This document shows, piece after piece, positions 36,378 through 54,162 of a stretch of 63,144 bases of DNA. Origin of the DNA: Planctomycetaceae bacterium (lineage in GTDB: Bacteria; Planctomycetota; SZUA-567); NCBI GenBank assembly GCA_021203245.1, contig JAJQBO010000226.1, positions 1 to 63,144 on the forward strand, given 5' to 3'. Each line of letters starts with the position of its first letter. Positions within the stretch are counted from its first letter, which is position 1. The notes under the pieces were generated by a model, which saw only the letters and a list, made by a program, of their open reading frames with translations, was not told the DNA's origin and made no database searches. The position numbers and the translations under genes were made by a program.

Positions 36378-36427
36378 ACAATTACAGCCTTTCTGGTGTG
36401 GGAAAATCTTCTGACTCTTACGTTGTT

Positions 36428-36573
36428 CGTACCCCCCGGCGTACAAAACGATCGCCGAAGCGTGAAGTTGTGCCGGGGCAGCCAGGCGACCATCTGCTGC
36501 ACATTCAGCTTCGTTTCGGCACAGCATAGCCAATCGCGTCCGCCCGGTTCACCGCTTCACCGCCGGGGTGACG
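36428..36573. mobile_element. MITE-like element, copy A
   Basis: The 146-bp unit ends with CGCCGGGGTGACG (36561-36573) and begins with an imperfect inverse, CGTACCCCCCGGCG (36428). The inner 109 bases (36467-36575 including the end) repeat in copy B at 36665-36773 without any length change. No coding capacity is visible. Confidence 0.7.
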
Positions 36574-36621
36574 ATAGAGTTACAGTGACGCTTTTGGGAT
36601 GAACAGTGTCCTTGCCCCTTA

Positions 36622-36771
36622 CGTCACCCCGGCGTGCGAACGGTCGCCGAGAGAAAAACGGGTGGTTGTGCCGGGGCAGCCAGGCGACCATCTGCTGCAC
36701 ATTCAGCTTCGTTTCGGCACAGCATAGCCAATCGCGTCCGCCCGGTTCACCGCTTCACCGCCGGGGTGACG
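36622..36771. mobile_element. MITE-like element, copy B, perfect inverted ends
   Basis: The 150-bp unit has perfect 13-bp terminal inverted repeats: CGTCACCCCGGCG (36622-36634) and CGCCGGGGTGACG (36759-36771). It is the best-preserved member of the family in this window and lies 48 bases after copy A in the same orientation. Confidence 0.75.
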
Positions 36772-36835
36772 ATGAGGGAGGTCGCCACCTTTCAGGTGCG
36801 ACCGGCCATAGCGCGACCGGCCGCCCCCCATATTC

Positions 36836-40901: not shown

Positions 40902-42014
40902 TTACTTTTCCGGGCCGACCGGCTTCTTTTCGACCATGATCGTTTCGTAGTCGACGCCGCATTCGGTGGCGATGTCCATGATCTCCTGCAGCGACTTGTC
41001 GTGGATGGCCACGCCTTCCCAGTCCACCCGGCGTTTGGTCTTTTCTTCGACCTCGCCCTGGGTGCTGATGCGTTCGTGACCGGCGGCCTTGGCCGAGTCG
41101 CGGATTTCGTTCAGGTAGGTGGAGAAGTGGCCTTCGATCTCCTTCTGGTCCCCGAACATGCTGTAGTCGATAGCCATGAACATGTGGCAGCACTTGTCGA
41201 CGTTCGGCACTTCGCGGACGTGGTTGGAGGTGCAGCCGCCGGCGAAGACGCCGGTCATCAGCTCGACCATGAGCGAAATCGCATAGCCCTTGTGGCCGCC
41301 GAAGGTGGTGCCGAAGCCGCCGATCGGCAGCAGGCCGCCGTCCAGCTTTTCCTTGCGGATCTTCAGGAAGGTCTCGGGGTCGGTGTTGATCTGGCCGTCG
41401 GAGCCGACCGACCAGCCTTCGGGAAGCGGCTGGTTGTTGCGGGCATAGACTTCAATTTTGCCGGCCGGGACGACCGAGGTGGCGATGTCGAAGTGGAACC
41501 AGACCGGGTTCGCGGGCATGGTCAGGGCGATGGGGTTGGTGCCCATCATGGCGCGGCGGCCGAAGGTCGGCACGACCATGGCTTCGGAGTTCGTCATCAC
41601 CAGGCCCATCAGGCCTTCGCGGGCGGCCATCATCGAGTAGTAGCCGCCGATGCCGAAGTGGTTGGAGTTGCGGACAACCACCATGCCGATGCCCGACTTT
41701 TTCGCCTTGGAGATGGCGAGGCGCATCGCCTTGATGGCGGCGGGCTGGCCCATGCCGTCGTTGGCGTCGATGACGCCGGAGACGGGGGTCTCGCGGATCA
41801 GGCTGATTTCGGCGGTGGGGTTGATGCGGCCCAGCTTCATGCCCTGCATGTACATGCCCAGGCGCAGAATGCCGTGGGATTCGATGCCCATGCGGTCTGC
41901 CTCGAGCAAGACATTGGCCACGTCCTGCGCCTTGTCCGGAGACAGACCCTGCGTTTCCATTACCGCCTTGACCAGGTTTTTCAAGCTCTTTACATCAAAT
42001 CGTCTCCGGCTCAT
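40902..42014 (-). CDS. Malate/L-lactate dehydrogenase family (Ldh2/MDH2-type) oxidoreductase
   Basis: The 370-residue protein belongs to the family of NAD(P)-dependent malate, lactate, sulfolactate and ureidoglycolate dehydrogenases that differ from classical Rossmann MDH. ADRMGIESHGILRLGMY contains the catalytic histidine; VVVRNSNHFGIGGYYSMMA and GHKGYAISLMVELMTG are family blocks. The ATG at 42014 with AAAGGAAAG is preferred; the frame is open upstream to the fumarase beta stop. In an operon with fumarase the most likely reaction is oxaloacetate to malate, the step before fumarate. Lactate or sulfolactate remain alternatives. Confidence 0.88.
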   Translation of the reverse strand: MSRRRFDVKSLKNLVKAVMETQGLSPDKAQDVANVLLEADRMGIESHGILRLGMYMQGMKLGRINPTAEISLIRETPVSGVIDANDGMGQPAAIKAMRLAISKAKKSGIGMVVVRNSNHFGIGGYYSMMAAREGLMGLVMTNSEAMVVPTFGRRAMMGTNPIALTMPANPVWFHFDIATSVVPAGKIEVYARNNQPLPEGWSVGSDGQINTDPETFLKIRKEKLDGGLLPIGGFGTTFGGHKGYAISLMVELMTGVFAGGCTSNHVREVPNVDKCCHMFMAIDYSMFGDQKEIEGHFSTYLNEIRDSAKAAGHERISTQGEVEEKTKRRVDWEGVAIHDKSLQEIMDIATECGVDYETIMVEKKPVGPEK

Positions 42015-42251
42015 GGTTCTTTCCTTTGTGTGCAATGGTTGCATTGGTTGTTGTACTTCAGACGGTTCCGTTGCCCCTGATGGTCCATCCTGTTGCGTTG
42101 GTTCCGCTTGCTGCGTTTGTCCCGCGTGTTCGTCGTGCGGGTGGGTCGTTTCGATCGGTGCGGCGTCTGCCGGGTTGAGCGGCGCGTCCGCTTGGGCTTG
42201 TCCTGTCCCGGCATCGCGGGCGGCGGTTTTTTTTGCGGCTCTTAGCCACGG

Positions 42252-42812
42252 CTATCCCCTGCTGGCAAGGTAGTTTTGGACGCCAATCTCGTAGAGGTTG
42301 TTGCCCTCGGAATCGATAATCACCGTGGCGGGGAAATCCTTCACCGTCAGGCGGCGAATCGCTTCCGAGCCGAGGTCTTCGTAGCACACCACTTCGGCGG
42401 CGGTGATGGACTTGGCGATCAGGGCGGCCGCGCCGCCGATCGCGCCGAAGTAGACGGCGCCGTTCTTTTTCATGCTGTCGATGACGTCCTGGGAGCGTTT
42501 GCCTTTGCCGAGCATGCCCCGGAGGCCGAGATCGAGGAGGCGGGGCGCGTAGGCGTCCATGCGGTAGCTGGTGGTCGGCCCGGCCGAGCCGATGACCTGT
42601 CCCGGCTTCGCCGGCGTGGGGCCGACATAATAGATAACCGCGCCCTCGACGTCGATGGGCAGTTTTTCGCCCTTGTCCAGCAGTTCCACCAGCCGGGCGT
42701 GCGCCGCGTCGCGGGCGGTATAGATGGTGCCGGAGAGGAGGACGGTGTCGCCGGCGCGCAATTTTTTCGCATCGGCCTTGGAGATGGGCGTGGTGAGTGC
42801 GATATTATCCAT
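42252..42812 (-). CDS. Class I fumarate hydratase, beta subunit
   Basis: The 186-residue protein is the C-terminal half of iron-sulfur hydro-lyases: LRAGDTVLLSGTIYTARDAAH, YYVGPTPAKPGQVIGSAGPT and the GAVYFGAIGGAAALIAKSI block. With the alpha subunit it forms a [4Fe-4S] fumarase (or L-tartrate dehydratase) in the cytoplasm. The ATG at 42812 has AAGGG. A heptad-repeat element separates it from the alpha gene. After its TAG stop the same frame stays open for 78 codons up to the dehydrogenase start, with an Ala/Gln/Pro/Thr-rich translation (see findings). Confidence 0.92.
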   Translation of the reverse strand: MDNIALTTPISKADAKKLRAGDTVLLSGTIYTARDAAHARLVELLDKGEKLPIDVEGAVIYYVGPTPAKPGQVIGSAGPTTSYRMDAYAPRLLDLGLRGMLGKGKRSQDVIDSMKKNGAVYFGAIGGAAALIAKSITAAEVVCYEDLGSEAIRRLTVKDFPATVIIDSEGNNLYEIGVQNYLASRG

Positions 42813-42827
42813 GGTTTGCCCTTCATC

Positions 42828-42972
42828 GAATTCACAATTCACAATTCACAATGCACAATTATGAACTGCAATTTTATAATTATCCAATTATCCCTGACGC
42901 ACATCCGATTCATGCACCAATCATCAAGAGCGTTACCCATTGTGAATTGTGCATTGTGAATTGTGCATTATC
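42828..42972. repeat. Heptad-repeat hairpin element, copy 2
   Basis: The left arm GAATTCACAATTCACAATTC, continuing with ACAATGCACAATTATGAA (42828-42865), and the right arm ATTGTGAATTGTGCATTGTG, continuing to ATTATC (42938-42972), are inverse series of 7-base units. The roughly 70-base core is different from the other copies. It lies between the two fumarase genes. Confidence 0.75.
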
Positions 42973-43813
42973 ATAGGTCCCGGCTCACATGCCTGGTCAC
43001 GTGGCAGTTGATGTTGACCGCCACCGGCAGCCCGGCGATGTGGGTGGGGAAGGTCTCGATGTTCACGCCCAGCGCGGTGGTCATGCCGCCGAAGCCCTGG
43101 GGGCCGATGCCGAGGGCGTTGATGCGCTCGAGCAGTTCCTTTTCCATGTCGGCGTAGTAGGGGTCGGGGTTCGGCTGGTTGATCGGCCGCTGCAAGGCCT
43201 TTTTGGCCTGGAGCGCCACCCGGTCGAAGGAGCCGCCGATGCCGACGCCGACGACGATGGGCGGGCAGGGGTTCGGGCCGGCGATGCGTGCCGTCTCGAC
43301 GACGAAGTCCTTGACGCCCTTTTCGCCCGCCGACGGCGCGAGCATGGCCAGACGGCTCATGTTTTCCGAGCCAAAGCCCTTCGGGGCGACGGTGAGGTGG
43401 ATTTTGTCGCCAGGGACGATTTCAACGTGGATAAGGGCAGGGGTGTTGTCGCCGGTGTTTTTGCGGCGAAGCGGGTCGGCGACGACGGACTTGCGGAGAA
43501 AGCCCTGGTTATAGCCTTGGCGGACGCCTTCGTTGATGGCATCATTAAGGTACGCGCCGGTGATGTGGACGTCCTGCCCAAGCTGGACGAGCACGACCGC
43601 CATTCCCGTGTCCTGGCAAAGGGGCATGCTGTCGCGCTTGGCGATTTCCATGTTCTCCACCAGTTTTTCCAGGGTGTCCTTGGCGCCGGGCCAGGGTTCG
43701 GATTGGCTGGTCTGGCGGATGCGTTCGGCGACGTCCCCGGGCAGTACCAGATTTGCCTCGATACACATGTCGCGCACCGCGGCGGTGATGGCGTCGGAAG
43801 TTATTTCCCTCAT
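42971..43813 (-). CDS. Class I fumarate hydratase, alpha subunit
   Basis: The 280-residue protein shows the alpha-subunit plan: MPLCQDTGMAVVLVQLG with the first cluster cysteine, GPNPCPPIVVGVGIGGSFD with the second, and NINCHVTRH with the third. The [4Fe-4S] cluster hydrates fumarate to malate reversibly. The first gene of the leftward operon, it lies downstream of a good minus-strand promoter (43957-43984) and the TATTGATA boxes. No strong ribosome-binding site other than AAGGGG at about -9 is needed; that one is well placed. Confidence 0.93.
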   Translation of the reverse strand: MREITSDAITAAVRDMCIEANLVLPGDVAERIRQTSQSEPWPGAKDTLEKLVENMEIAKRDSMPLCQDTGMAVVLVQLGQDVHITGAYLNDAINEGVRQGYNQGFLRKSVVADPLRRKNTGDNTPALIHVEIVPGDKIHLTVAPKGFGSENMSRLAMLAPSAGEKGVKDFVVETARIAGPNPCPPIVVGVGIGGSFDRVALQAKKALQRPINQPNPDPYYADMEKELLERINALGIGPQGFGGMTTALGVNIETFPTHIAGLPVAVNINCHVTRHVSRDL

Positions 43814-43956
43814 CTCTACCCCTTGTGCAAACGGTTTTTAACAGTTGATAGTGGTATGGATACTCTACAACTTGGGCGGGGCCGCGGGACGGACGTGCCT
43901 TCCGTGCCGGGCATTCAGTAATTCTTTATCAATAGTTTTTTATCAATATGTCTTAC

Positions 43957-43984
43957 AGTATAACACTTTCGGGTACTTCGTCAA
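43957..43984 (-). promoter_or_regulatory. Sigma-70 type promoter of the fumarase operon
   Basis: On the minus strand TTGACG (43984-43979) and TATACT (43962-43957) are spaced by 16 bases, 144 bases upstream of the fumarase alpha start. Confidence 0.7.
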
Positions 43985-44140
43985 GTCAAATTAGTAATAA
44001 AATATTGATATAAAAATATTGATTTAAAAGGAGTTGGCGGCTCGTTCGCCTAAATTTCCCTCCTGCTTGGGTTTTCGCACCAAGGTATGGATATAAAATT
44101 ATTGATATGGATATATTGATAAAAAAATATCGATTTGGTA

Positions 44141-44169
44141 TTGACAAGGCCGACGCTATAGTGTATTGA
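44141..44169 (+). promoter_or_regulatory. Candidate promoter of the Hdr-Flx operon
   Basis: TTGACA (44141-44146) and TATTGA (44164-44169) are spaced by 17 bases. Both overlap TATTGATA-type boxes. The start codon of hdrB is 355 bases downstream, so a long untranslated leader would result. Confidence 0.5.
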
Positions 44170-44524
44170 TTAAATATCTCTTAAAGGCACCTACCGGCAG
44201 TTTTCGAAATTGCGTTTCTCCTTTCGTTTGTTGCGTATTTTATTCGTTATTTTTGCCAAATTCGGCTGCTATGAAATGTAGCTAGTGGCTGGATATCGCG
44301 ACGGAATTGTCGACTTGGCAGACAGATATGGGATATGGCAACAATATCCGCGTCGGCGTTGTGTTATCGTTAATTCGGTAAACCCCGCCCGAAGCTCTGA
44401 AACGGGAAATGGCAATTTCCATAAAATCCCGTCCGCCGCGTTCCGGGAACGCGGCGTGTGGAATACCGTACGCTCTTGTAGGGCAGGGGTGTTGTCTGTC
44501 CTAGCCGCCTGAAAGCACACGACC

Positions 44525-45340
44525 ATGAACTATTACCCGGGTTGTACCTTGAAGACAAAGGCGCGGCAACTCGACACGTGCGCCCGAAACGCGGCCGCCG
44601 CCCTGGGGGTCGACCTCCAGGAACTGCCCGAATGGCAGTGCTGCGGGGCTGTTTATCCGCTCGCCCGCGACGAAATCGGCACAAAGTTGTCGTCGGTGCG
44701 CGCCCTTGCCGCCGCCCGCGACAATGGGGGCGAGTTGGTCACCCTCTGTTCCGCCTGTCATCACGTCATCAAGCGAGTCAATGACGACATGGCGAACGAC
44801 GATCTCATCCGCACCCGCGCCAACAACTACCTGCAGCTTCCCCAGCCCTATGCGGGCGAGACCAAGGTCATTCACTACCTTGAAATGCTCCGGGACACAG
44901 TCGGCTTCGCCGCCATCAAGGAAAAGGTTCAGAACTCCCTCGGCGGCAAGAAAGTGGCGGCGTACTACGGCTGCCTCCTGCTCCGGCCCAGCAAGGTCAT
45001 GCAGTTCGACAAGCCGGACAACCCGTCCATTGTCGAAGACCTCATCGCCGCCATGGGCGGCGAGCCGGTGAAGTTCCCGAAGCGGAGCCAGTGCTGCGGC
45101 GGCTACGTCACCCTCGGCAACAAGGAAGGGGCGCAGGCCCGCACCGAGGCGGTCCTCGCGTCGGCGGCGAAGAGCGGGGCAGAACTCATCCTCACCGCCT
45201 GCCCGCTGTGCCTCTACAACCTGACTCAGAACGCCACCGAGACCACGGTCCCGGTCAAATACTTTACCGAGGTTTTGGCCGAAGCGCTTGGCGTGCCGGC
45301 CGAGGCCGAAGCCGGGAGGGCTTGCGCATGCACTCACTGA
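44525..45340 (+). CDS. hdrB: HdrB-like heterodisulfide reductase subunit B
   Basis: The 271-residue protein has two CCG domains: the first with YYPGC, ELPEWQCCGAVYPL and LCSACHHV; the second with YYGCLLLRP, RSQCCGGYV and TACPLCLYN. These cysteines bind the noncubane [4Fe-4S] clusters that split disulfides in methanogen HdrB and its bacterial homologues. Bacterial partners may be DsrC-like proteins or small thiols. It is the first gene of an eight- to nine-gene operon and overlaps hdrC by 13 bases. No clear ribosome-binding site stands immediately before the ATG. Confidence 0.92.
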   Translation: MNYYPGCTLKTKARQLDTCARNAAAALGVDLQELPEWQCCGAVYPLARDEIGTKLSSVRALAAARDNGGELVTLCSACHHVIKRVNDDMANDDLIRTRANNYLQLPQPYAGETKVIHYLEMLRDTVGFAAIKEKVQNSLGGKKVAAYYGCLLLRPSKVMQFDKPDNPSIVEDLIAAMGGEPVKFPKRSQCCGGYVTLGNKEGAQARTEAVLASAAKSGAELILTACPLCLYNLTQNATETTVPVKYFTEVLAEALGVPAEAEAGRACACTH

Positions 45341-45714
45341 ATCCCGCCCGCGACATTGAACGCATCTCCGGTATCAACGCCCGCCGCTGCATGCACTGCG
45401 GCAAATGCAGCGCCAGTTGCCCCGCCTTCCACGAGATGGACATCCACCCGCACCAGGTCGCGGGCATGGTCGCCGACGGCGATATCGAAGGGCTTGCGAA
45501 CTGCAAGACCCTGTGGCGCTGTTTGTCCTGTTTCGCCTGCGTCGAACGTTGCCCCCGCGACGTCCAGCCCGCCAACCTCATTGAGGCGGTGCGGCTCTGG
45601 CAGATTCGCCGTTCGGGTGAAAACCACATGCATCCCCAGGACATCCCGGAAATGCTGGACGACGAACTGCCGCAGCAGGCGATTGTCTCGGCCATGCGGA
45701 AATACGCGAAATAG
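45328..45714 (+). CDS. hdrC: HdrC-like subunit with two [4Fe-4S] clusters
   Basis: The 128-residue protein carries two ferredoxin motifs, CMHCGKCSASCP and CLSCFACVERCP, in the arrangement of HdrC. It passes electrons between HdrA and the HdrB active site. The ATG at 45328 is set by GGAGG at 45315-45319 and overlaps the end of hdrB, so translation is coupled. A heptad-repeat element follows before hdrA. The separate HdrB and HdrC genes match the HdrABC form rather than HdrDE fusions. Confidence 0.92.
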   Translation: MHSLNPARDIERISGINARRCMHCGKCSASCPAFHEMDIHPHQVAGMVADGDIEGLANCKTLWRCLSCFACVERCPRDVQPANLIEAVRLWQIRRSGENHMHPQDIPEMLDDELPQQAIVSAMRKYAK

Positions 45715-45723
45715 GTATGAGGT

Positions 45724-45848
45724 GAATTCGTGAATGCACAATTCACAATGCACAATTATGAAAGACAATTCAGCAATTTTACAATGTGCGAACGCGTCAA
45801 CGATGTTGCGGTAATCATTGTGAATTATGAATTGTGAATTATGAATTC
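45724..45848. repeat. Heptad-repeat hairpin element, copy 3
   Basis: The left arm ATGCACAATTCACAATGCAC, continuing with AATTATGAA (45733-45762), and the right arm ATTGTGAATTATGAATTGTG, continuing with AATTATGAATTC (45817-45848), are tandem 7-base units in inverse orientation around a core of about 55 bases. Both ends carry GAATTC. It lies between hdrC and hdrA. Confidence 0.78.
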
Positions 45849-45887
45849 AATTTTCAGTTCCACCCTAATCAAGGGGGATAACGTATC

Positions 45888-47876
45888 ATGCATAGAATCG
45901 GCGTATTTGTCTGCTGGTGCGGCTCGAACATCGCCGCGATCGTGGACGTCAAGGCGGTGGCGGAAGCGCTCGGCAAGGAACCCGGCGTCGTCTTTTCCAT
46001 GGATTACCAGTATATGTGTTCCGAAGGCGGGCAGGGTGCCATCCGCGCCGCCATCAAGGAACACGAACTGACCGGCATTGTCGTCGCGTCGTGCTCGCCG
46101 CGCATGCACGAAAACACCTTCCGCAAGGCCGCCGCAGCCGCCGGGCTGAACCCGTTCCTGGTGGAAATCGCCAACATCCGCGAGCAGTGCTCCTGGATTC
46201 ACCGCGACAAGACGGACGCGACCGAAAAGGCCCTTATCCTCGGCCGTGCCGCCATCGCGAAGCTGATGCTCAACACGCCGCTCCAGGCGGGCGAGAGCAA
46301 GGTCGTCAAGCGCGCCCTGGTTATTGGCGGCGGCATCGCCGGTCTCCAGACCGCCCTCGACATCGCCGACGCCGGTTTCAAGGTCGACGTGGTTGAGCGG
46401 AAGCCCACCATCGGCGGCAAGATGGCGCAACTGGACAAGACCTTCCCCACCCTCGACTGCGCCGCGTGCATCCTGACGCCGAAGATGGTGGAAGCGGCCC
46501 AGCACGAAAACATCACCCTCCACACCTATTCGCAGGTGGAGGCGGTCAGCGGCTTTGTCGGCAACTTCACCGCCACTATCCGCAAAAAAGCCCGCTATGT
46601 CGACGAAAAGGCCTGTACCGGCTGCGGCGACTGCATGGCCAAGTGCCCGTCCAAAAAGGCGAAGAGCGAGTTCGACCAGGGCCTCAAGAACCGCCCGGCC
46701 ATCTATATCCCCTTCGCCCAGGCCATCCCGAACGTCCCGGTCATCGACACGACGGAATGCATCAAGTTCAAGACCGGCAAGTGCGGCATCTGCCAGAAGA
46801 TTTGCCAGGCCAAGGCGGTCGATTACGAACAGCAGGACACGGTCTTTAAAGAAAGCTATGGCGCTATTATCGTCGCCACCGGCTTTGACACGATGTCGCC
46901 GGACAAGTACGGCGAATTTCACTACGAGGAATACCCGGACGTCATCACCTCGCTCGAGTTCGAGCGCCTCTGCAACGCGGCCGGCCCAACCGGCGGCCAC
47001 CTCGTGCGTCCGTCCGACCACAAGGAACCGAAGAAGGTGGTGTTTGTCCAGTGCGTCGGTTCCCGGAACGGCGGCGACTGCGACGGCAAGACCTATTGCT
47101 CGAAAATCTGCTGCATGTACACGGCCAAGCACGCGATGCTGACCCGCGAGAAGTATCCGGACTCCGAAGTCTATGTCTTCTACATCGACGTCCGCACCCC
47201 GGGCAAGAACTTCGACGAGTTCCAGCGCCGCGCCATCGAGCAGTACGACGTGCATTATATCAAGGGCATGGTCGGCCAGGTGGAGCAGAACGGCGATACC
47301 CTCACTGTCCAGGCGTCGGACCTCCTGAACGACAAGCAGATTATCCTTGACGCCGACCTGGTCGTCCTGGCGATGGCGGTCCAGCCCGAGGAAGGCGCGC
47401 GCGCCATCGGCACGATGCTGACCGCGAGCATGGACACGAACGACTTCTTCACCGAAGCCCACCCCAAGCTCCGCCCGGTGGAAAGCCCCACCGCCGGCAT
47501 CTTCCTGTCCGGCCTGTGCCAGGGGCCAAAGGATATCCCCGAGACGGTGGCGCAGGCGGGCGCGGCCGCGTCAAAGGCCATCGGCCTCCTCGCGAAGGAC
47601 CACCTGGTCACCAATCCCTGCGTGGCCGGCTCGTCCAACAGCCTGTGTAACGGCTGCTCGATGTGCGAAAACGTCTGCCCCTACGGCGCGATCGGCTATG
47701 AAGACCAGCAGGTGGTCCGGGACGGCAAGCGCGTCATGGCCCGTCAGGCGGTCGTCAACGAAGCGGTGTGCCAGGGCTGCGGCGCCTGCACCGTGACCTG
47801 TCCCTCGGGCGCGATGGATCTCAAGGGATTCTCGACCCGGCAGATTTTGGCGGAGGTTGATGCGATATGTCGATAG
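45888..47876 (+). CDS. hdrA: HdrA-like flavoprotein subunit
   Basis: The 662-residue protein starts with the HdrA signature IGVFVCWCGSNI. A cysteine-containing segment, then FAD-binding VIGGGIAGLQTALDIADAGF (about 144-163), KTFPTLDCAACILTPKM, and two ferredoxin modules (CTGCGDCMAKCP near 245 and CNGCSMCENVCP plus CQGCGACTVTCP near the C-terminus) follow. HdrA is the bifurcating flavin subunit in methanogens: one electron path to ferredoxin, one to HdrB. AGGGGG precedes the ATG. Its stop overlaps the flxD-like start. Fused C-terminal ferredoxins are usual for bacterial HdrA of Flx-Hdr type. Confidence 0.95.
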   Translation: MHRIGVFVCWCGSNIAAIVDVKAVAEALGKEPGVVFSMDYQYMCSEGGQGAIRAAIKEHELTGIVVASCSPRMHENTFRKAAAAAGLNPFLVEIANIREQCSWIHRDKTDATEKALILGRAAIAKLMLNTPLQAGESKVVKRALVIGGGIAGLQTALDIADAGFKVDVVERKPTIGGKMAQLDKTFPTLDCAACILTPKMVEAAQHENITLHTYSQVEAVSGFVGNFTATIRKKARYVDEKACTGCGDCMAKCPSKKAKSEFDQGLKNRPAIYIPFAQAIPNVPVIDTTECIKFKTGKCGICQKICQAKAVDYEQQDTVFKESYGAIIVATGFDTMSPDKYGEFHYEEYPDVITSLEFERLCNAAGPTGGHLVRPSDHKEPKKVVFVQCVGSRNGGDCDGKTYCSKICCMYTAKHAMLTREKYPDSEVYVFYIDVRTPGKNFDEFQRRAIEQYDVHYIKGMVGQVEQNGDTLTVQASDLLNDKQIILDADLVVLAMAVQPEEGARAIGTMLTASMDTNDFFTEAHPKLRPVESPTAGIFLSGLCQGPKDIPETVAQAGAAASKAIGLLAKDHLVTNPCVAGSSNSLCNGCSMCENVCPYGAIGYEDQQVVRDGKRVMARQAVVNEAVCQGCGACTVTCPSGAMDLKGFSTRQILAEVDAICR

Positions 47877-48304
47877 CGAACGAAGACGTCAAAACCAAGC
47901 CGCTGATCGTGGCCTTTTGCTGCAACTGGTGCAGCTACGCCGGGGCCGATCTGGCCGGCACCAGCCGCCTGACGTACCCTGCGGACGTCAAGATTATCCG
48001 CGTGCCCTGTTCCTGCCGCGTCAACCCCATGTTTATCCTCCGCGCCTTCCAGCGCGGGGCGGACGGGGTCATTATCGCCGGCTGCCACCCCGGCGACTGT
48101 CACTACACCTCTGGGAACTACTTCGCCCGCCGCCGGATGTCACTCCTGTTCAGCATGCTGGACTACTTGGGCATTGAGCGCCAGCGCACCCGGGTCGAGT
48201 GGATTTCCGCCGCCGAAGGCAGCAAGTTCGCGAAGACCATGTCCGAATTCGCCGAACAGGTTGCCGCCCTGGGCAAGCCGAACCATTTGGGGGAACTGCG
48301 CTGA
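47867..48304 (+). CDS. flxD: MvhD/FlxD-like [2Fe-2S] subunit
   Basis: The 145-residue protein contains FCCNWCSYAGADLAG, VPCSCRVNP and GCHPGDCHYTSGN, the conserved cysteines of the methyl-viologen hydrogenase delta subunit. In methanogens it links hydrogenase to HdrA; in Flx-Hdr complexes it links the NADH module to HdrA. It overlaps hdrA by 10 bases and shares TGATG with the next gene. Confidence 0.93.
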   Translation: MSIANEDVKTKPLIVAFCCNWCSYAGADLAGTSRLTYPADVKIIRVPCSCRVNPMFILRAFQRGADGVIIAGCHPGDCHYTSGNYFARRRMSLLFSMLDYLGIERQRTRVEWISAAEGSKFAKTMSEFAEQVAALGKPNHLGELR

Positions 48305-49302
48305 TGAGCATACAAGACAAAATCCTCGCCCGCGCCAAGGAGCTCATGGCGGACGGCACAGTCACGAGCGTGCTTGGCTGGAAAAAGGGTGAAACGTATA
48401 CCGACCCCAGCCCCGCCTTCTTCACCTCGGTCGAAGAGCTGGAGCGCGACTTTATTTTCAACCACTTCTGCGGGCAGAACCTTTCCCGTCTCCTGAACGG
48501 CCGCAAGGCCGAGGACGGCAAGGTGCTGATGCTGTGCAAGCCTTGCGACGCCTTCAGCCTGAACCAGATGCTCGGGCAGCACCGGCTTGAACGGGACTCC
48601 GTCTATGTCCTGGGCATTCCCAGCCCCACTATCCTGGATGCTGACAAGCTTCGCGCCGCCGGCATAAAGGGGATTCGCGGCTCGCGGTTCGCCCGTGGCG
48701 GCGAGGTCGTCCTCGACACCCTCTATGGCGAAAAGCGCATCGCCGGCAAGGACGCGGTCCTCGAGAAATGCCTCTCCTGCAAGACGCACAAGTTCCCCGT
48801 CTCCGACGAAATTCTGGTCAAGCCGAAGGGCGAGGAACACGACGAGCCGGAAAACCCCTACCGCTTCGCCGGGGTCGAGGAACTGGAAACGATGACGCCG
48901 GACGAGCGCTTCGCCTTCTGGCAGTCGCACCTCAAGCGCTGCATCCGCTGCAACGCCTGCCGCAACGCCTGCCCGGTCTGCGCCTGCGTCAAGTGCGTGT
49001 TCGACAATCCGGGGTCGGAAGTGGCGGGCAAGTCCAACATCGACGCCTTCGACGACAAGCTTTTCCACGTCATCCGGGCCTTCCACGTTGCCGGCCGCTG
49101 CACCGACTGCGGCGAATGCAGCCGGGCCTGTCCGGAAGGGATTCCGCTGCACCTGCTGAACCGGAAGTTCATCAAGGACATCAACCGGATCTACGGTCCG
49201 TTCCAGGCCGGCGCGTCGGACGACGGCGTGTCGCCGCTGACCGAATACAACACGGAAGACATGGAACCCGGCGAAGCCATCCTCAAAGGGAGTGGAAGCT
49301 GA
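48304..49302 (+). CDS. Iron-sulfur protein of the Flx module (FlxB/C-type)
   Basis: The 332-residue protein has an N-terminal FrhB-like or dehydrogenase beta-like region (MLCKPCDAFSLNQML and CLSCKTHKFP) and a C-terminal ferredoxin-like domain with CIRCNACRNACPVCACVKC and CTDCGECSRACPEG. It is one of the two polyferredoxin-type proteins between FlxD and FlxA in flxABCD-hdrABC clusters; I cannot tell with certainty whether it is the B or C member. Start and stop overlap both neighbours (TGATG and ATGA), indicating a coupled complex. It probably wires electrons from the NADH flavoprotein to FlxD/HdrA. Confidence 0.85.
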   Translation: MSIQDKILARAKELMADGTVTSVLGWKKGETYTDPSPAFFTSVEELERDFIFNHFCGQNLSRLLNGRKAEDGKVLMLCKPCDAFSLNQMLGQHRLERDSVYVLGIPSPTILDADKLRAAGIKGIRGSRFARGGEVVLDTLYGEKRIAGKDAVLEKCLSCKTHKFPVSDEILVKPKGEEHDEPENPYRFAGVEELETMTPDERFAFWQSHLKRCIRCNACRNACPVCACVKCVFDNPGSEVAGKSNIDAFDDKLFHVIRAFHVAGRCTDCGECSRACPEGIPLHLLNRKFIKDINRIYGPFQAGASDDGVSPLTEYNTEDMEPGEAILKGSGS

Positions 49303-50351
49303 TGAAAAAGATTTCGACAGAAAAGCTCCCGCTGCTCTACGCCGCCCTGAACGGCGACCGGCAGCTCTGGATTCCCGTCCAGGACGGGGATCGGGTCGAG
49401 TTCGGTTTGTGGCGGGAAGGCGCGGCCGTGAACCTCGCCGGCAAGACCCTGAAGAGCGGCAAGGATTTCTTCTTTCCGCAGAACGAGGACTTCGTCTCTT
49501 TCCAGAAGGAAGGCAAGAAGATAACCATCACCGAAAAGAAGCGCCCGACCGACGAGTTCGTTGTCTTCGGGATGCGCGGCTGCGACCTGGCCGGCCTTGA
49601 GGTCCTGGACCTCGTCTTCCTGGCCGAGCCGAAGGACAGCTTCTACGAAGCGCGCCGTGGGGCAGGCGTCATCGTCACCCTCGCCTGCGGCACGCCTGAC
49701 GAAAGCTGCTTCTGCACCGCCTTCGGCGTGAACCCGGCCGAACCCAAGGGCGACGTCGCCGCGTGGCTCGTCGGCGACACGCTCTACTGGAAGCCCACGA
49801 GCGACAAGGGCGAAAAACTCACCGCCGAATTGGGCAGCCTCCTCGAGGACGCCGGCGCGGACGGCGACAAAGCGGTTGCCGAACAACAGGCCGCCATTGC
49901 CGACATCCTTAAACAACTTCCCAACACCGAACTCGAACTGCCGAAGGTCGGCGACGCCGAGTTCGATGCGTGGTTCGAGTCGCCCAACTGGGCGAAGATG
50001 GCGGAAAGCTGCCTCGGCTGCGGCACCTGCACCTTTGTCTGTCCCACCTGCCAGTGCTACGACATCCAGGACCGGGACACCAAGGACGGCATCCGCCGCT
50101 TCCGCTGCTGGGATTCATGCATGTATTCGGACTTTACCCTGATGGCGCACGGCAATATCAGGAACACCCAGATGCAGCGCTTCCGCCAGCGTTTTATGCA
50201 CAAGCTGGTCTATTTCCCGCAGAACAACGACGGCAAATACTCCTGCGTCGGCTGCGGCCGTTGCGTCGAGAAATGCCCGTCGTCACTCAATATCGTCAAG
50301 GTCATCAAAGCCATGCAGGCCATGGAAGCCATGGAAGGGGTGGGCAAATGA
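49302..50351 (+). CDS. Iron-sulfur protein of the Flx module, AsrA-like
   Basis: The 349-residue protein resembles anaerobic sulfite reductase subunit A and FlxB/C-type proteins. An N-terminal part with FVVFGMRGCDLAGLEVLD and CGTPDESCFCTAFG, then two [4Fe-4S] motifs CLGCGTCTFVCPTCQCYD and CVGCGRCVEKCP. It probably docks to the following AsrB/FlxA-like flavoprotein and carries electrons. Its start overlaps the previous stop and its stop overlaps the next start (ATGA), so stoichiometric synthesis with neighbours is likely. No sulfite-reductase catalytic subunit (AsrC) is nearby, so sulfite reduction is not indicated. Confidence 0.87.
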   Translation: MKKISTEKLPLLYAALNGDRQLWIPVQDGDRVEFGLWREGAAVNLAGKTLKSGKDFFFPQNEDFVSFQKEGKKITITEKKRPTDEFVVFGMRGCDLAGLEVLDLVFLAEPKDSFYEARRGAGVIVTLACGTPDESCFCTAFGVNPAEPKGDVAAWLVGDTLYWKPTSDKGEKLTAELGSLLEDAGADGDKAVAEQQAAIADILKQLPNTELELPKVGDAEFDAWFESPNWAKMAESCLGCGTCTFVCPTCQCYDIQDRDTKDGIRRFRCWDSCMYSDFTLMAHGNIRNTQMQRFRQRFMHKLVYFPQNNDGKYSCVGCGRCVEKCPSSLNIVKVIKAMQAMEAMEGVGK

Positions 50352-51208
50352 GCGGCTGCTCCTGCGGTACTAACACCACCGCCACGAAGGATATGCTGAT
50401 CCCGATGCTGGGCGTGGTGACGAACATCAAGCAGCAAACGCCGGACGTGCAGACCTACCGGGTCGAGGCTCCGGGGGGCGGTGTCGTTTTCCCGCACCTG
50501 CCGGGCCAGTGCGCCATGGTGTCGGTGCCGGGCGTCGGCGAGGCGATGTTCTCCATCACCTCCAGCCCGACCAACACCGAGTACATGGAATTCTCGGTCA
50601 AGCGCTGCGGCATGCTCACGGACTACCTGCACCATATGGACGCAGGGCAGGAGGTGACGGTGCGCGGCCCCTATGGCAACAACTTCCCGGTTGAGACCGA
50701 GCTGAAGGGGAAAGACCTTCTCTTCATCGCCGGCGGCATCGGCCTTGCGCCCCTGCGCTCGGTCATCAACTACGTCCGCCACAACCGCAAGAACTACGGC
50801 ACCGTCGACATCGTCTACGGGTCACGTTCGGCCGCCGACCTCGTCTATTTGGATGAAATCAAGAACGAGTGGGACGGCAAGGACGACGTCAAAGTTCACC
50901 TCACCATCGACCGCGAGGAAGACGGCTGGGACGGCCACGTCGGCTTTGTCCCGAACTATGTCAAGGAACTGGCGTTCCCCCCGACCAAGACGGTGCTGGT
51001 CTGCGGCCCGCCAATCATGATCAAGTTCGTCCTCCAGGCCCTGCAGGAAATGGGCTTCGCCAAGACGCAGGTCTACACCACCCTGGAACTGCGGATGAAG
51101 TGCGGCATCGGCAAGTGCGGCCGCTGCAACATCGGTCCCAAATACGTGTGCCGCGACGGCCCGGTTTTCCGCTGCGACGAACTCGACGAGATACCGGACG
51201 AGTACTAG
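50348..51208 (+). CDS. flxA: FlxA/AsrB-like NAD(P)H flavoprotein
   Basis: The 286-residue protein has a ferredoxin-NADP reductase-type fold: FAD-binding MFSITSSPTNTEYMEFSVK, NAD-binding FIAGGIGLAPLRSVINYV and CGPPIMIKFVLQAL. A C-terminal [2Fe-2S] motif CGIGKCGRCNIGPKYVC of the PyrK/AsrB type follows. It is the likely entry point for NADH. The N-terminus MSGCSCG is cysteine-rich. It ends with tandem TAG stops and is followed by a heptad-repeat element. In Flx-Hdr complexes this subunit oxidises NADH and passes electrons to HdrA through the iron-sulfur proteins and FlxD. Confidence 0.88.
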   Translation: MSGCSCGTNTTATKDMLIPMLGVVTNIKQQTPDVQTYRVEAPGGGVVFPHLPGQCAMVSVPGVGEAMFSITSSPTNTEYMEFSVKRCGMLTDYLHHMDAGQEVTVRGPYGNNFPVETELKGKDLLFIAGGIGLAPLRSVINYVRHNRKNYGTVDIVYGSRSAADLVYLDEIKNEWDGKDDVKVHLTIDREEDGWDGHVGFVPNYVKELAFPPTKTVLVCGPPIMIKFVLQALQEMGFAKTQVYTTLELRMKCGIGKCGRCNIGPKYVCRDGPVFRCDELDEIPDEY

Positions 51209-51231
51209 TAGAAGCGTAGTCATTATTGTTC

Positions 51232-51354
51232 GAATTCACAATTCACAATTCACAATGCATAATTATGAACCACAATGATCCAATGGTCCAATTGTCGCAT
51301 TGATGAATTGGTGTAATAATTGTGAATTATGAATTGTGAATTGTGCATTATTAA
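51232..51354. repeat. Heptad-repeat hairpin element, copy 4
   Basis: The left arm GAATTCACAATTCACAATTC, continuing with ACAATGCATAATTATGAA (51233-51268), and the right arm ATTGTGAATTATGAATTGTG, continuing with AATTGTGCATTA (51318-51351), are 7-base unit arrays around a core of about 50 bases. It lies between flxA and the fumarate-reductase-like iron-sulfur gene. Confidence 0.78.
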
Positions 51355-51368
51355 AGAATGGACTCACT

Positions 51369-52055
51369 ATGGAAACGACGCCGCAAAAAATGGTCCACGT
51401 CTATATCATGGGGAAACGCTACGAGGTGCCTTCGACCCTCACCATCATGGGCGCGTACGAGTACGCGGGCTACAGGCTGGTGCGCGGCTGCGGCTGCCGT
51501 AACGGCTTCTGCGGCGCATGCGCCACCATCTACCGCATCGCCGGCGACCGCGAGCTGAAGGTCTGCCTCGCCTGCCAGACGGCGGTCGAAGACAACATGT
51601 ACATCGCCTCGCTGCCGTTCTTCCCGCTTGTCAAGGAACTCTACGACATCGAAAAGGTGCGCCCCACCGAACAGATCATGATGCAGCTCTATCCGGAAAT
51701 CTACTCCTGCATCGGCTGCAACGCCTGCACCAAGGCTTGTACCCAGGACCTGAACGTGATGCAGTACATCGCCCATGCCCAGCGGGGCGAGTACGACGTC
51801 TGCGCCGAGGAGTCCTTTGACTGCGTCATGTGCGGCGTCTGTTCGTCCCGGTGCCCGGCCGGCATCTCGCATCCGCAGGTGGCGCTCCTCGCCCGCCGCC
51901 TCACCGGCAAGTACCTGGCTCCCGAGTCGAAGCACCTCACGAATCGCGTGAAGGAAATCGACAACGGCGACTTCAACGAGCTCATCGCCAATCTCATGGG
52001 CAAGCCGCTGGAAGAAATCAAGGAACTCTACAATAACCGCGAAATCGAGGTGTAG
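51369..52055 (+). CDS. Fumarate reductase/succinate dehydrogenase-like iron-sulfur subunit
   Basis: The 228-residue protein has an N-terminal [2Fe-2S] ferredoxin domain (RGCGCRNGFCGAC with a further CLAC about 25 residues on) and a C-terminal dicluster domain (CIGCNACTKACTQDLNV and CVMCGVCSSRCPAGISH). The plan is that of SdhB/FrdB and of the N-terminal part of TfrB of methanogen thiol:fumarate reductase, but the CCG domain of TfrB is absent, and an HdrB is encoded separately at the head of the same operon. The ATG at 51369 is the first start clear of the repeat element. It precedes the flavoprotein gene by 17 bases. Confidence 0.9.
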   Translation: METTPQKMVHVYIMGKRYEVPSTLTIMGAYEYAGYRLVRGCGCRNGFCGACATIYRIAGDRELKVCLACQTAVEDNMYIASLPFFPLVKELYDIEKVRPTEQIMMQLYPEIYSCIGCNACTKACTQDLNVMQYIAHAQRGEYDVCAEESFDCVMCGVCSSRCPAGISHPQVALLARRLTGKYLAPESKHLTNRVKEIDNGDFNELIANLMGKPLEEIKELYNNREIEV

Positions 52056-52072
52056 CGAAAGGGGGTGCCGAG

Positions 52073-53683
52073 TTGTACACACAGGAAATGTTGGATTCCA
52101 TCGCCAAGGTTGAAGCGGCCCGCAAGGACAATATCGCCGCCACGCCGCGCCGCATGACCGCCGAGGAAAAAAGCGACCTGCTGGCGAAGTTCCACCCGGA
52201 CTACCGTCCCGACAAATTCATGAGCCTGTCGATCGGCCCGAACAAGGGCGAAAAGGTGCCGCTCGAACTCGGCGCGCTTCTCCAGGGCCGCAGCCGCGTC
52301 CTCGACCTGAACGTCGACCTGAACCACCCCGACTACGACGTCGACGTCCTCGTCATCGGCGGTGGCGGTTCCGGATCGTCTGCCGCCATCGAGGCCCACG
52401 AGGCGGGCGCGAACGTGATGATGGTCACGAAGCTGCGTATCGGCGACGCCAACACCATGATGGCCGAGGGCGGCATCCAGGCGGCTGACAAGGAAAACGA
52501 CTCCCCCGCACAACACTATCTCGACGCCTTCGGCGGCGGCCACTACGCCGCCGTCCCCGAACTCCTCCGCAAACTCGTCTGCGACGGCCCCGGCGCGGTG
52601 CAGTGGCTGAACAAACTGGGCGTGATGTTCGACAAGGACGAGAACGGCGTCATGATCACCACCCACGGCGGCGGCACCAGCCGCAAGCGCATGCACGCCG
52701 CCAAGGACTACTCCGGGGCGGAAATCATGCGCACCCTCCGCGACGAAGTCCTCAACCGCCAGATCCCGGTGGTCGACTTCACCGCCGCCATCGAACTGAT
52801 TCTCGACGACAAGGGCCGCGCCGCCGGCGCTGTCCTCATGAACATGGAGACCGAGGAAATCATGGTCGCCCGGGCCAAGGTGGTGGTCATCGCCACCGGC
52901 GGCGCGGGGCGGATGCACTACCAGGGCTTCCCCACGTCGAACCACTACGGCGCGACCGCCGACGGTCTGGTGCTGGCCTACCGGGCCGGTGCGCGGCTCC
53001 TCTACCAGGACACGCTGCAGTATCACCCGACCGGCGTCGCCTTCCCGAACCAGATTTTCGGCGCGCTGGTGACGGAAAAAGTGCGTTCGCTCGGCGCGAA
53101 GCTGGTCAACCGCGAGGGCGTGGTCTTCATGCATCCCCTGGAAACGCGCGACGTCTCGGCCGCGTCCATCATTCGCGAGTGCAACGAACGCAAGCTCGGC
53201 CTCGAGACCACGGACGGCCTCGGCCTGTGGCTGGACACTCCGATGATCGAAGCCATTCACGGCGCGGGCGCAATCGAGAAGCGCATCCCGGCGATGCTCC
53301 GCATGTACTCGAAGTACGACATGGATATCCGCGAAAAGCCGATTCTCATCTACCCGACCCTGCACTACCAGAACGGCGGCATCCGCATTTCGGCGGACGG
53401 CCAGTCGGACATTGAAAACCTGCTGGTGGCAGGGGAAGCGGTCGGCGGCATCCACGGCCGCAACCGCCTGATGGGCAACTCCCTCCTCGACATCATCGTC
53501 TTCGGCAGAAACGCCGGCCAGGAGGCGGGCCGCCGCTACAAGAACATCACCCCCGGCACGCCCAACCTCAATCACGTGGACAAATACGAGTCCATGCGCC
53601 GCGAGGCAGGCATCGAGACGGCGAACGCCAGCCCGATGCTGCTGCCTGATTACACCCGCAGGCGGGAAGCGGTGGCGAACTAG
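52073..53683 (+). CDS. Fumarate reductase-like flavoprotein, no membrane anchor partner
   Basis: The 536-residue protein belongs to the SdhA/FrdA/NadB family: VLVIGGGGSGSSAAIEAHEA (FAD), MAEGGIQAA, the LQYHPTGVAFPN active-site block and GRNRLMGNSLLDIIVFGR. At the position where membrane FrdA/SdhA carry the flavin-linked histidine the sequence reads GDANTMMAEGG, with Asn127, so FAD is probably not covalently bound. A TTG at 52073 with AAAGGGGG is the likely start; an ATG five codons later is possible. No cytochrome b-type anchor gene follows; a terminator does. The probable reaction is fumarate to succinate in the cytoplasm. Aspartate oxidase is the main alternative, but the pairing with an iron-sulfur subunit argues against it. 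Confidence 0.87.
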   Translation: MYTQEMLDSIAKVEAARKDNIAATPRRMTAEEKSDLLAKFHPDYRPDKFMSLSIGPNKGEKVPLELGALLQGRSRVLDLNVDLNHPDYDVDVLVIGGGGSGSSAAIEAHEAGANVMMVTKLRIGDANTMMAEGGIQAADKENDSPAQHYLDAFGGGHYAAVPELLRKLVCDGPGAVQWLNKLGVMFDKDENGVMITTHGGGTSRKRMHAAKDYSGAEIMRTLRDEVLNRQIPVVDFTAAIELILDDKGRAAGAVLMNMETEEIMVARAKVVVIATGGAGRMHYQGFPTSNHYGATADGLVLAYRAGARLLYQDTLQYHPTGVAFPNQIFGALVTEKVRSLGAKLVNREGVVFMHPLETRDVSAASIIRECNERKLGLETTDGLGLWLDTPMIEAIHGAGAIEKRIPAMLRMYSKYDMDIREKPILIYPTLHYQNGGIRISADGQSDIENLLVAGEAVGGIHGRNRLMGNSLLDIIVFGRNAGQEAGRRYKNITPGTPNLNHVDKYESMRREAGIETANASPMLLPDYTRRREAVAN

Positions 53684-53717
53684 TAGTCATTGGATTCACG
53701 AAGAGATTTAGCATGAA

Positions 53718-53747
53718 GACCCGCTTCCCTGGAGGCGGGCCTTTTTT
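53718..53747 (+). terminator. Terminator of the Hdr-Flx-Frd operon
   Basis: GACCCGC (53718-53724) and GCGGGCC (53735-53741) form a stem with one mismatch, extended inward by CTTCC/GGAGG pairing, and are followed by six T. Confidence 0.8.
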
Positions 53748-54162
53748 AATAAAGAGCAAGGCCAGCCGATTTGGCGGCGGCATTGAGCTGCCGATCTTTC
53801 GAAGCCAGGGGAAGTCCCGAAACCAATGCCAACTGCAGGTAGGCGGCATCGTATGCCGTGAGCCCAAAACGGCTCGAAATCACGAAAATGTCGAAAGCCA
53901 TGGTAGCGGGTGCGGATTCGTCGGCAACCACGCTAATGGGGAGTGTCGATAGCAGCCGTAGAAATCTCAGCGCCTGGCCCTCCACCAGCCGATTACGCTT
54001 TACCCCGCTGTACAGTATATTGGCAACTTCAAGGGGCCATAATCCCGGTACGATTGCTCCTTCCGCTCTAACGGCCTCAAAGATCCGCACCGTTTGGTCA
54101 TCGCGTTCATCTTCGAAGGCAAGACTCAGCGTGGCGGAGCTATCGAGAACAAGTGCTGGCAT
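53746..54162 (-). CDS. vapC: PIN-domain toxin, VapC-like
   Basis: The 138-residue protein has the PIN-domain acidic residues: LVLDSSATLSL (first Asp), PLEVANIL (Glu), LTAYDAAYLQLA (Asp) and ASKDRQLN (Asp/Asn region). PIN toxins are Mg-dependent RNases, usually cutting tRNA or rRNA. Its ATG overlaps the antitoxin stop by one base (TAATG). The length fits VapC. It is convergent with the Hdr operon and its end touches that operon's terminator. Confidence 0.9.
   Translation of the reverse strand: MPALVLDSSATLSLAFEDERDDQTVRIFEAVRAEGAIVPGLWPLEVANILYSGVKRNRLVEGQALRFLRLLSTLPISVVADESAPATMAFDIFVISSRFGLTAYDAAYLQLALVSGLPLASKDRQLNAAAKSAGLALY

What the first reader, a model, noticed from the sequence alone, without database searches (positions are those of the whole stretch)
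40902..53747. Hdr-Flx operon fused to a soluble fumarate reductase, divergent from fumarase/malate dehydrogenase
The sequence shows hdrB-hdrC-hdrA-flxD-FeS-FeS-flxA followed in the same operon by an FrdB-like and an FrdA-like gene without any membrane anchor, and a divergent operon of class I fumarase and a malate/lactate-type dehydrogenase. Known: FlxABCD-HdrABC oxidises NADH, proposed with electron bifurcation to ferredoxin and a disulfide; methanogen TfrAB couples fumarate reduction to thiol oxidation, with TfrB carrying a CCG (HdrB-like) domain. Here that CCG protein is separate (HdrB). Inference: a cytoplasmic complex in which NADH reduces fumarate directly or through a thiol/disulfide carrier while reducing ferredoxin, giving a membrane-independent route oxaloacetate-malate-fumarate-succinate.
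Basis: partly seen in the sequence, partly recalled or inferred. Interest (0 to 1): 0.78.

Follow-up and report, generated by a model that had tools for sequence, protein, structure and literature searches.

The report
Soluble Hdr-Flx-linked fumarate reductase operon
A gut planctomycete carries a nine-gene operon that probably builds a soluble enzyme which uses NADH to turn fumarate into succinate while also charging ferredoxin; the gene set is real and very common in gut Clostridia, but both it and this idea were already published.

Summary
Confirmed: hdrB-hdrC-hdrA-flxD-flxC-flxB-flxA-frdB-frdA lies at 44525-53683 (+), divergent from a two-subunit class I fumarase and an Ldh_2-type dehydrogenase (40902-43813, -). 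The genome is a Planctomycetota MAG. It shows no Sdh_cyt anchor, no DsrC and no second CCG protein; it has Rnf and [FeFe]-hydrogenases. The adjacency is not local: in the 80 closest relatives, mostly gut Clostridia, all 62 contigs long enough carry the same nine genes in the same order, and the other 18 end exactly where genes are missing. Clostridial copies follow an unrelated class II fumarase (54/59) and malate dehydrogenase (44/59). FrdA keeps the fumarate-binding residues and is not the aspartate oxidase, which lies elsewhere. In other Planctomycetota the recurring core is HdrC-HdrB-FrdB-FrdA with variable or absent HdrA/Flx, which argues for HdrB-to-FrdB contact. Best reading: a soluble NADH-dependent fumarate reductase, probably bifurcating to ferredoxin. 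Operon and mechanism were already proposed for Pseudoclostridium thermosuccinogenes (2019-2020) and, with tfrAB, for tubeworm symbionts (2019). New here: the laterally acquired planctomycete version, the core-module evidence, and a locus-specific 14-nt operator-like array. Bifurcation remains unproven.

The parts
40902..42014 (-). Ldh_2-family (malate/L-lactate/sulfolactate-type) dehydrogenase; probable malate dehydrogenase by context
   Evidence: PF02615 376 bits; best NCBIfam hit L-sulfolactate dehydrogenase, below its cut-off
42252..42812 (-). Class I fumarase, beta subunit
   Evidence: PF05683; NF005310 Fe-S-containing hydro-lyase 324 bits, above its cut-off of 238
42971..43813 (-). Class I fumarase, alpha subunit
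   Evidence: PF05681 388 bits
43926..44172 (.). AT-rich divergent intergenic region with phased TATTGATA-type repeats (14-nt period), probable operator array
   Evidence: 10 of 15 window matches lie here; 0 of 100 shuffles reach 15; the phased double motif occurs nowhere else in the 4.09-Mb genome; also in sister species L041
44525..45340 (+). HdrB: two CCG domains, all ten cluster cysteines kept
   Evidence: PF02754 twice; C7, C39, C40, C75, C78, C150, C190, C191, C226, C229 invariant in 69 sequences; matches PDB HdrB chains such as 8rvv_B and 5odc_B
45328..45714 (+). HdrC: soluble protein with two [4Fe-4S] motifs
   Evidence: NCBIfam HdrC hits; eight cysteines invariant in 67 sequences
45888..47876 (+). 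HdrA: FAD- and Fe-S-containing presumed bifurcating subunit, full-length
   Evidence: NF040770 HdrA2 791 bits; aligned over residues 3-660 to PDB HdrA 8rvu and 5odc, E about 1e-199
47867..48304 (+). FlxD (MvhD/FlpD)
   Evidence: PF02662 188 bits
48304..49302 (+). FlxC: Fe-S electron-transfer subunit
   Evidence: PF13183 Fer4_8; most cysteines, in CxxCxxCxxxC runs, invariant in 76 sequences
49302..50351 (+). FlxB: Fe-S subunit related to sulfhydrogenase beta
   Evidence: PF17179; NF040829 191 bits; PDB 9nez_B E 6e-40
50348..51208 (+). FlxA: FAD/NAD-binding subunit related to sulfhydrogenase gamma
   Evidence: PF00175, PF00970, PF10418; PDB 9nez_C E 4.5e-56
51369..52055 (+). FrdB-like: [2Fe-2S] motif plus two complete [4Fe-4S] motifs
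   Evidence: Twelve ligand cysteines invariant in 89 sequences; E. coli FrdB lacks one of them; weak match to TfrB N-terminus
52073..53683 (+). FrdA-like flavoprotein; fumarate-site residues kept; about 85-aa N-terminal extension; no C-terminal SdhA-type helical domain
   Evidence: NF004900 TfrA 315 bits; residue map; AlphaFold model pTM 0.83, closest PDB fold E. coli quinol-fumarate reductase FrdA

Best explanation
The nine genes encode one soluble FlxABCD-HdrABC-FrdBA enzyme. NADH is oxidised at FlxA; electrons pass through FlxB, FlxC and FlxD to the FAD of HdrA and are split there. The low-potential electrons reduce ferredoxin; the others pass through HdrC and HdrB to FrdB and on to the FAD of FrdA, where fumarate becomes succinate. 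Expected net reaction: 2 NADH + Fd(ox) + fumarate -> 2 NAD+ + Fd(red) + succinate. The divergent dehydrogenase and fumarase supply fumarate from oxaloacetate and malate; reduced ferredoxin would be spent by Rnf and [FeFe]-hydrogenases. Shown here: gene content, conserved order, catalytic and cluster ligands, and failure to find an anchor or DsrC in the genome. Inferred: physical complex, direct HdrB-to-FrdB transfer (about 0.75), bifurcation with ferredoxin (about 0.6), direction towards succinate (about 0.9).
For: Identical nine-gene order in all 62 testable homologous loci; 18 truncated loci lack only genes beyond the contig end. Unrelated class II fumarase directly upstream of HdrB in 54/59 loci (median 40.5 nt) and an LDH-fold dehydrogenase with an MDH-type Arg in 44/59: two non-homologous solutions to the same oxaloacetate-to-fumarate supply. 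FrdA has H318, T334, E335, R359, H431, R465 at the fumarate-site positions of E. coli FrdA, lacks the NadB Glu121, and a true NadB lies elsewhere. FrdB has eight invariant Cys for two [4Fe-4S]. No Sdh_cyt, DsrC or second CCG protein was found in the genome; Rnf and [FeFe]-hydrogenases were. HdrC-HdrB-FrdB-FrdA recurs without HdrA/Flx beside it (L037, L126). TfrB carries FrdB-like and HdrB-like parts in one profile. HdrA is full-length against solved HdrA of bifurcating methanogen complexes. Thermodynamics: fumarate/succinate +33 mV against NADH -320 mV (PMC5861303). The P. thermosuccinogenes succinate operon rose about 4-fold under CO2 limitation (PMC7282089).
Against: No biochemistry for this or any homologous complex was found in the papers searched. 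Ferredoxin reduction remained uncertain even for the purified MetFV-HdrABC-MvhD (PMC5861303), so Hdr modules need not be shown to bifurcate. Both HdrB CCG clusters are fully kept, which pure wiring might not require. L036 shows FrdBA without Hdr neighbours, and L038 lies near a different CCG protein. The genome is 88.8% complete, so absences are provisional. The FrdB model is poor (pTM 0.48) and no complex could be modelled.
Confidence: 0.6

Rival explanations
1. The complex is a soluble NADH-dependent fumarate reductase without bifurcation: all electrons go from NADH to fumarate, and ferredoxin is not reduced.
For: Recalled precedent, not read here: Hydrogenobacter thermophilus soluble five-subunit NADH-dependent fumarate reductase (J Bacteriol 2008). 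Ferredoxin was left as a question mark for MetFV-HdrABC-MvhD (PMC5861303).
Against: Full-length HdrA with all expected FAD and Fe-S regions and a seven-gene Flx-Hdr input would be an elaborate way to do a reaction that is already strongly downhill; Rnf and hydrogenases that could use reduced ferredoxin are encoded.
Confidence: 0.22
2. Thiol-coupled version: Flx-Hdr reduces a small disulfide at HdrB and the thiol then drives fumarate reduction, as in methanogen thiol:fumarate reductase run on a regenerated carrier.
For: All ten CCG cysteines are invariant in 69 HdrB sequences; TfrA is the best-scoring NCBIfam family for FrdA; HdrC-HdrB-FrdB-FrdA without HdrA/Flx beside it exists (L037, L126).
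Against: FrdB and FrdA have no CCG domain, so a free thiol could only feed them through the same HdrB; no DsrC was found in the genome; no candidate thiol gene lies in the operon.
Confidence: 0.12
3. It runs in reverse as a succinate dehydrogenase: electrons from reduced ferredoxin and succinate are merged to make NADH.
For: Hdr and Frd reactions are reversible in principle.
Against: Succinate oxidation at about +33 mV to NADH at -320 mV needs strong ferredoxin input; the relatives are gut fermenters, and P. thermosuccinogenes, which has the same kind of operon, makes succinate (PMC7282089).
Confidence: 0.04
4. The flavoprotein is not a fumarate reductase but an aspartate oxidase or another enoate reductase.
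For: FrdA lacks the SdhA/FrdA C-terminal domain, has an unusual N-terminal extension, and misses every NCBIfam cut-off.
Against: All six fumarate-site residues are kept, NadB Glu121 is not, a separate NadB exists, the closest fold is E. coli FrdA, and fumarase genes accompany it in two unrelated forms.
Confidence: 0.02

Closest known systems
'Succinate operon' of Pseudoclostridium thermosuccinogenes (PMC7282089; Koendjbiharie and van Kranenburg 2019 preprint, cited there)
   Same: Fumarate hydratase, a seven-gene Flx-Hdr set and a two-gene fumarate reductase in one operon; same proposed coupling to ferredoxin.
   Different: Different phylum. In the window a class I fumarase is divergent and an Ldh_2 dehydrogenase accompanies it; whether the P. 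thermosuccinogenes proteins are close homologues was not tested.
flxABCD-hdrABC with tfrAB and korABCD in tubeworm symbionts and Thioflavicoccus (PMC6315080, PMC11636981)
   Same: Same functional partners and a proposed direct electron shuttle from Hdr-Flx to the fumarate reductase.
   Different: Embedded in a reductive TCA cluster with 2-oxoglutarate:ferredoxin oxidoreductase genes; here there is no kor or acl in the operon.
Thiol:fumarate reductase TfrAB of methanogens
   Same: Soluble FrdA-type flavoprotein (TfrA is the best NCBIfam hit) and the FrdB plus CCG module content.
   Different: TfrB joins FrdB-like and CCG parts in one protein; here they are separate, with HdrA and an NADH input added. 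Scores are far below the TfrA and TfrB cut-offs.
FlxABCD-HdrABC of Desulfovibrio
   Same: The same seven-subunit NADH dehydrogenase/heterodisulfide reductase module.
   Different: A disulfide (DsrC type) is the proposed acceptor there (from general knowledge); here frdBA is attached and DsrC was not found.
MetFV-HdrABC-MvhD of Moorella
   Same: An HdrABC-MvhD module joined to a non-disulfide acceptor enzyme.
   Different: Acceptor is methylene-tetrahydrofolate; no Flx subunits are named for it in the source read (PMC5861303).
Quinol:fumarate reductase FrdABCD (E. coli)
   Same: FrdA catalytic site and fold.
   Different: No Sdh_cyt anchor, FAD-linking His replaced by Asn, [3Fe-4S] site replaced by [4Fe-4S] ligands, no C-terminal helical domain.

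Membership tests
FlxABCD-HdrABC | All seven genes present with the expected domains | tested here: met
FlxABCD-HdrABC | CCG cluster ligands in HdrB (disulfide-reducing site) | tested here: met
   All ten CCG cysteines invariant in 69 sequences; activity not testable
HdrA-type electron-bifurcating complexes | Full-length HdrA with FAD and Fe-S domains | tested here: met
   Residues 3-660 aligned to 8rvu and 5odc; cluster-ligand cysteines conserved
HdrA-type electron-bifurcating complexes | Coupled reduction of ferredoxin and a high-potential acceptor | not testable with these tools
   Needs enzyme assay
Hdr-Flx-linked fumarate reductase (P. thermosuccinogenes kind) | Flx-Hdr and frdBA in one conserved gene set with fumarase | tested here: met
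   62/62 intact loci share the nine-gene order; FumC upstream in 54/59; class I fumarase divergent in the window
Thiol:fumarate reductase TfrAB | TfrB with FrdB and CCG domains in one protein | tested here: not met
   Separate FrdB (228 aa) and HdrB (271 aa)
Thiol:fumarate reductase TfrAB | TfrA family score above the curated cut-off | tested here: not met
   315 bits against 718
Quinol:fumarate reductase (FrdABCD/SdhABCD) | Membrane anchor subunit | tested here: not met
   None in the window; no PF01127 match in the 88.8%-complete genome; E. coli-type FrdC/FrdD families were not searched separately
Quinol:fumarate reductase (FrdABCD/SdhABCD) | [3Fe-4S] cluster in FrdB and covalent FAD His in FrdA | tested here: not met
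   Fourth Cys present at the last cluster; Asn127 in place of the His
Fumarate reductase catalytic subunit | Fumarate-binding and catalytic residues | tested here: met
   H318, T334, E335, R359, H431, R465; fold match to 5vpn/1kf6
L-aspartate oxidase (NadB) | Glu121 and family score above the cut-off | tested here: not met
   Gly aligned in place of Glu121 in the family; 257 bits against 452.75; the real NadB on C262 scores 505 bits
Hydrogenobacter soluble NADH-dependent fumarate reductase | Five-subunit composition and homology of all subunits | not tested

The most novel reading that the evidence does not exclude
A soluble electron-bifurcating fumarate reductase, in which an HdrC-HdrB-FrdB-FrdA core is fitted with interchangeable input modules (none, an HdrA/FlxD-type module, or the full NADH-oxidising FlxABCD-HdrA module); it lets many gut Clostridia, and by lateral transfer a planctomycete genus, make succinate while charging ferredoxin without quinone or membrane. 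No such enzyme has been purified as far as the papers searched show.
Probability: 0.55. Interest if true: 0.7.

Novelty: new member of a known kind. Interest (0 to 1): 0.45.

Why it matters
If bifurcation is real, fumarate reduction to succinate in these gut bacteria conserves energy through ferredoxin (Rnf ion pumping or H2) instead of through quinone respiration, which changes energy and redox budgets for a very common group of fermenters. The gene set is in hundreds of genomes (554 or more related stretches), including a named isolate, Christensenella intestinihominis (L068), so the open question can be tested directly.

Tried and rejected
Chance or local adjacency: rejected (62/62 intact loci). 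Aspartate oxidase: rejected (residues, separate NadB). Anchor encoded elsewhere in the genome: not found (PF01127 search only; E. coli-type FrdC/FrdD families were not searched separately). Contaminant contig: judged unlikely, since four genus mates carry the genes, those in the FrdA tree form one clade, and GC and GC3 match the flanks. FrdB structure search: model too weak (pTM 0.48), hits uninformative. The Koendjbiharie preprint itself was not held. PEPCK: the ATP-type family was not found, GTP-type not searched; methylmalonyl-CoA mutase not found, so there is no support for onward conversion to propionate. Rfam gave only one tRNA.
Full report
WHAT IS THERE. On the + strand, 44525-53683, lie hdrB, hdrC, hdrA, flxD, flxC, flxB, flxA, frdB and frdA. 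Most junctions overlap; the only gaps are 173 nt before hdrA, 160 nt before frdB and 17 nt before frdA. Divergently, across a 711-nt AT-rich gap, lie the two subunits of a class I fumarase and an Ldh_2-family dehydrogenase (40902-43813). The frdA start is a TTG, in register with the ATG starts of homologues.

WHERE IT COMES FROM. The window is one contig of a 4.09-Mb, 88.8%-complete assembly. Four of six genus mates carry close copies (FrdB 81-96% identity), while no other member of the family searched does; only 13 of 392 Planctomycetota genomes have this FrdB. In a FrdA tree the genus forms one clade (99*) on the side of gut Clostridia, Treponema and Synergistaceae, away from five other planctomycete homologues (a quick tree, with long branches among the five). 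The simplest reading is lateral acquisition within gut communities. GC content and GC3 match the flanks, so the genes have probably been resident for some time.

IS THE ADJACENCY REAL AND CONSERVED? Yes. A genome scan found at least 554 related stretches and returned the 80 closest. All 80 carry flxA-frdB-frdA. Of these, 62 have all nine genes in the same order and strand; the other 18 begin inside or just before the first gene found, so the missing genes are simply off the contig. In 54 of 59 loci with enough upstream sequence, a class II fumarase (FumC; one example scored 736 bits, above its cut-off) lies on the same strand a median 40.5 nt before hdrB; in 44 of 59 an LDH-fold dehydrogenase precedes it. 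NCBIfam calls one example L-lactate dehydrogenase, but all 35 readable copies carry Arg-Lys-Pro-Gly where lactate dehydrogenases have Gln (the Gln/Arg rule is from general knowledge), which marks them as probable malate dehydrogenases. Planctomycetes therefore reach the same oxaloacetate-malate-fumarate supply with unrelated enzymes (class I fumarase, Ldh_2). That is strong contextual evidence for fumarate as substrate.

THE FLAVOPROTEIN. FrdA scores best against TfrA (315 bits) but misses every curated cut-off. Aligned to E. coli FrdA and NadB from K-12, it keeps H318, T334, E335, R359, H431 and R465, the fumarate-site residues, has Asn127 in place of the His that binds FAD covalently, and lacks the NadB-specific Glu121. 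A separate protein on contig C262 is the genome's NadB (505 bits, above cut-off). FrdA has a well-ordered N-terminal extension of about 85 residues and lacks the C-terminal helical domain of SdhA/FrdA. The model (pTM 0.83) matches E. coli quinol-fumarate reductase first in the PDB.

THE ELECTRON PATH. FlxA and FlxB resemble the gamma and beta subunits of sulfhydrogenase. HdrA aligns end to end with the solved methanogen HdrA. HdrB keeps all ten CCG cysteines in 69 of 69 sequences. FrdB has a [2Fe-2S] motif and eight further invariant cysteines (two [4Fe-4S]); E. coli FrdB has one fewer because its last cluster is the [3Fe-4S] next to the quinone (cluster assignment of E. coli FrdB from general knowledge). 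This fits a soluble donor rather than quinol. No Sdh_cyt anchor, no DsrC and no other CCG protein were found in the genome, whereas Rnf and five [FeFe]-hydrogenase matches were.

WHICH PART TOUCHES FrdB? Other planctomycetes help. L126 has HdrC-HdrB-FrdB-FrdA, with no HdrA or Flx in the 2.5 kb before it; L037 has fumarase-HdrC-HdrB-FrdB-FrdA; L129 has FlxD, an Fe-S protein, HdrC-HdrB-FrdB-FrdA; L127 and L128 add HdrA-type genes, and L127 follows genes that look by eye like 2-oxoglutarate:ferredoxin oxidoreductase. The recurring neighbours of FrdB are HdrB and HdrC, not FlxA. TfrB of methanogens covers an FrdB-like stretch and a CCG stretch in one protein (profile positions hit by our FrdB and HdrB). 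Both point to direct HdrB-to-FrdB transfer. Exceptions: L036 has FrdBA without Hdr neighbours, and L038 has FrdBA near a different CCG protein, so FrdBA is not tied to HdrB everywhere.

HOW IT MOST LIKELY WORKS. NADH -> FlxA -> FlxB/C/D -> HdrA FAD; one branch to ferredoxin, the other through HdrC/HdrB -> FrdB -> FrdA -> fumarate. With NADH at -320 mV and fumarate/succinate at +33 mV (PMC5861303) the energy is ample to lift one pair to ferredoxin. Direct wiring is well supported by genomic evidence; bifurcation itself is inferred by analogy with HdrA complexes and remains unproven. Rivals are listed with their tests.

WHAT WAS KNOWN. PMC7282089 describes the P. thermosuccinogenes 'succinate operon' (fumarate hydratase, Flx-Hdr, fumarate reductase), about 4-fold up under CO2 limitation, and cites a 2019 preprint on a fumarate reductase potentially involved in bifurcation. 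PMC6315080 proposed the same kind of complex for tubeworm symbionts and Thioflavicoccus; PMC11636981 reports expression support for that cluster in Endoriftia, with tfrAB as an exception to co-expression. PMC4914600 notes frdA next to hdrA and mvhD in large sulfur bacteria. No purified enzyme was found, within an open-licence library only. So the kind is known as a proposal; this is a new, laterally acquired member with added comparative evidence.

UNEXPECTED. The divergent promoter region holds TATTGATA-type repeats at an exact 14-nt period. The phased pair, with up to two mismatches, occurs five times in the genome, all five here, and a similar phased array is in the sister species L041. It looks like the operator of a dedicated, unidentified regulator.

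Noticed in passing
window 43926-44172; L041 2750-3011: Phased TATTGATA repeats (14-nt period) between the divergent operons; the double motif is found nowhere else in the genome and recurs in the sister species. Regulator unknown.
   Followed up: partly
L041-L120, upstream of hdrB: Gut Clostridia place a class II fumarase and an MDH-type LDH-fold dehydrogenase before the same nine genes, whereas the window genus uses class I fumarase and an Ldh_2 enzyme: non-homologous replacement of pathway partners.
   Followed up: yes
L048 5065-6747; L062 12311-13549: AspT/YidE-type antiporter-like gene downstream of frdA or of the fumarase; candidate dicarboxylate exporter, with weaker matches in many other loci.
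   Followed up: partly
L036 6686-12191: FrdBA followed by genes that look like 2-oxoglutarate:ferredoxin oxidoreductase (by eye), preceded by multihaem cytochrome and Fe-S membrane genes, in another planctomycete; no Hdr.
   Followed up: no
L038 4600-13360: FrdBA near a sigma-54-type regulator, a DsrK/HdrD-like CCG protein and membrane subunits (by eye): another possible input to the same FrdBA.
   Followed up: no
G000 C86 (L123) and C175 (L124): Two further FrdA/NadB-like flavoproteins of unknown substrate; the C86 copy lies next to a TRAP-transporter-like gene (by eye).
   Followed up: no
window 36400-36800: A roughly 110-bp sequence appears twice close together (same translated string in two adjacent ORFs); possible intergenic repeat element.
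   Followed up: no
window 53746-54162 (-): PIN-domain-like (VapC-type) ORF by eye directly after frdA on the opposite strand; not tested by family search.
   Followed up: no
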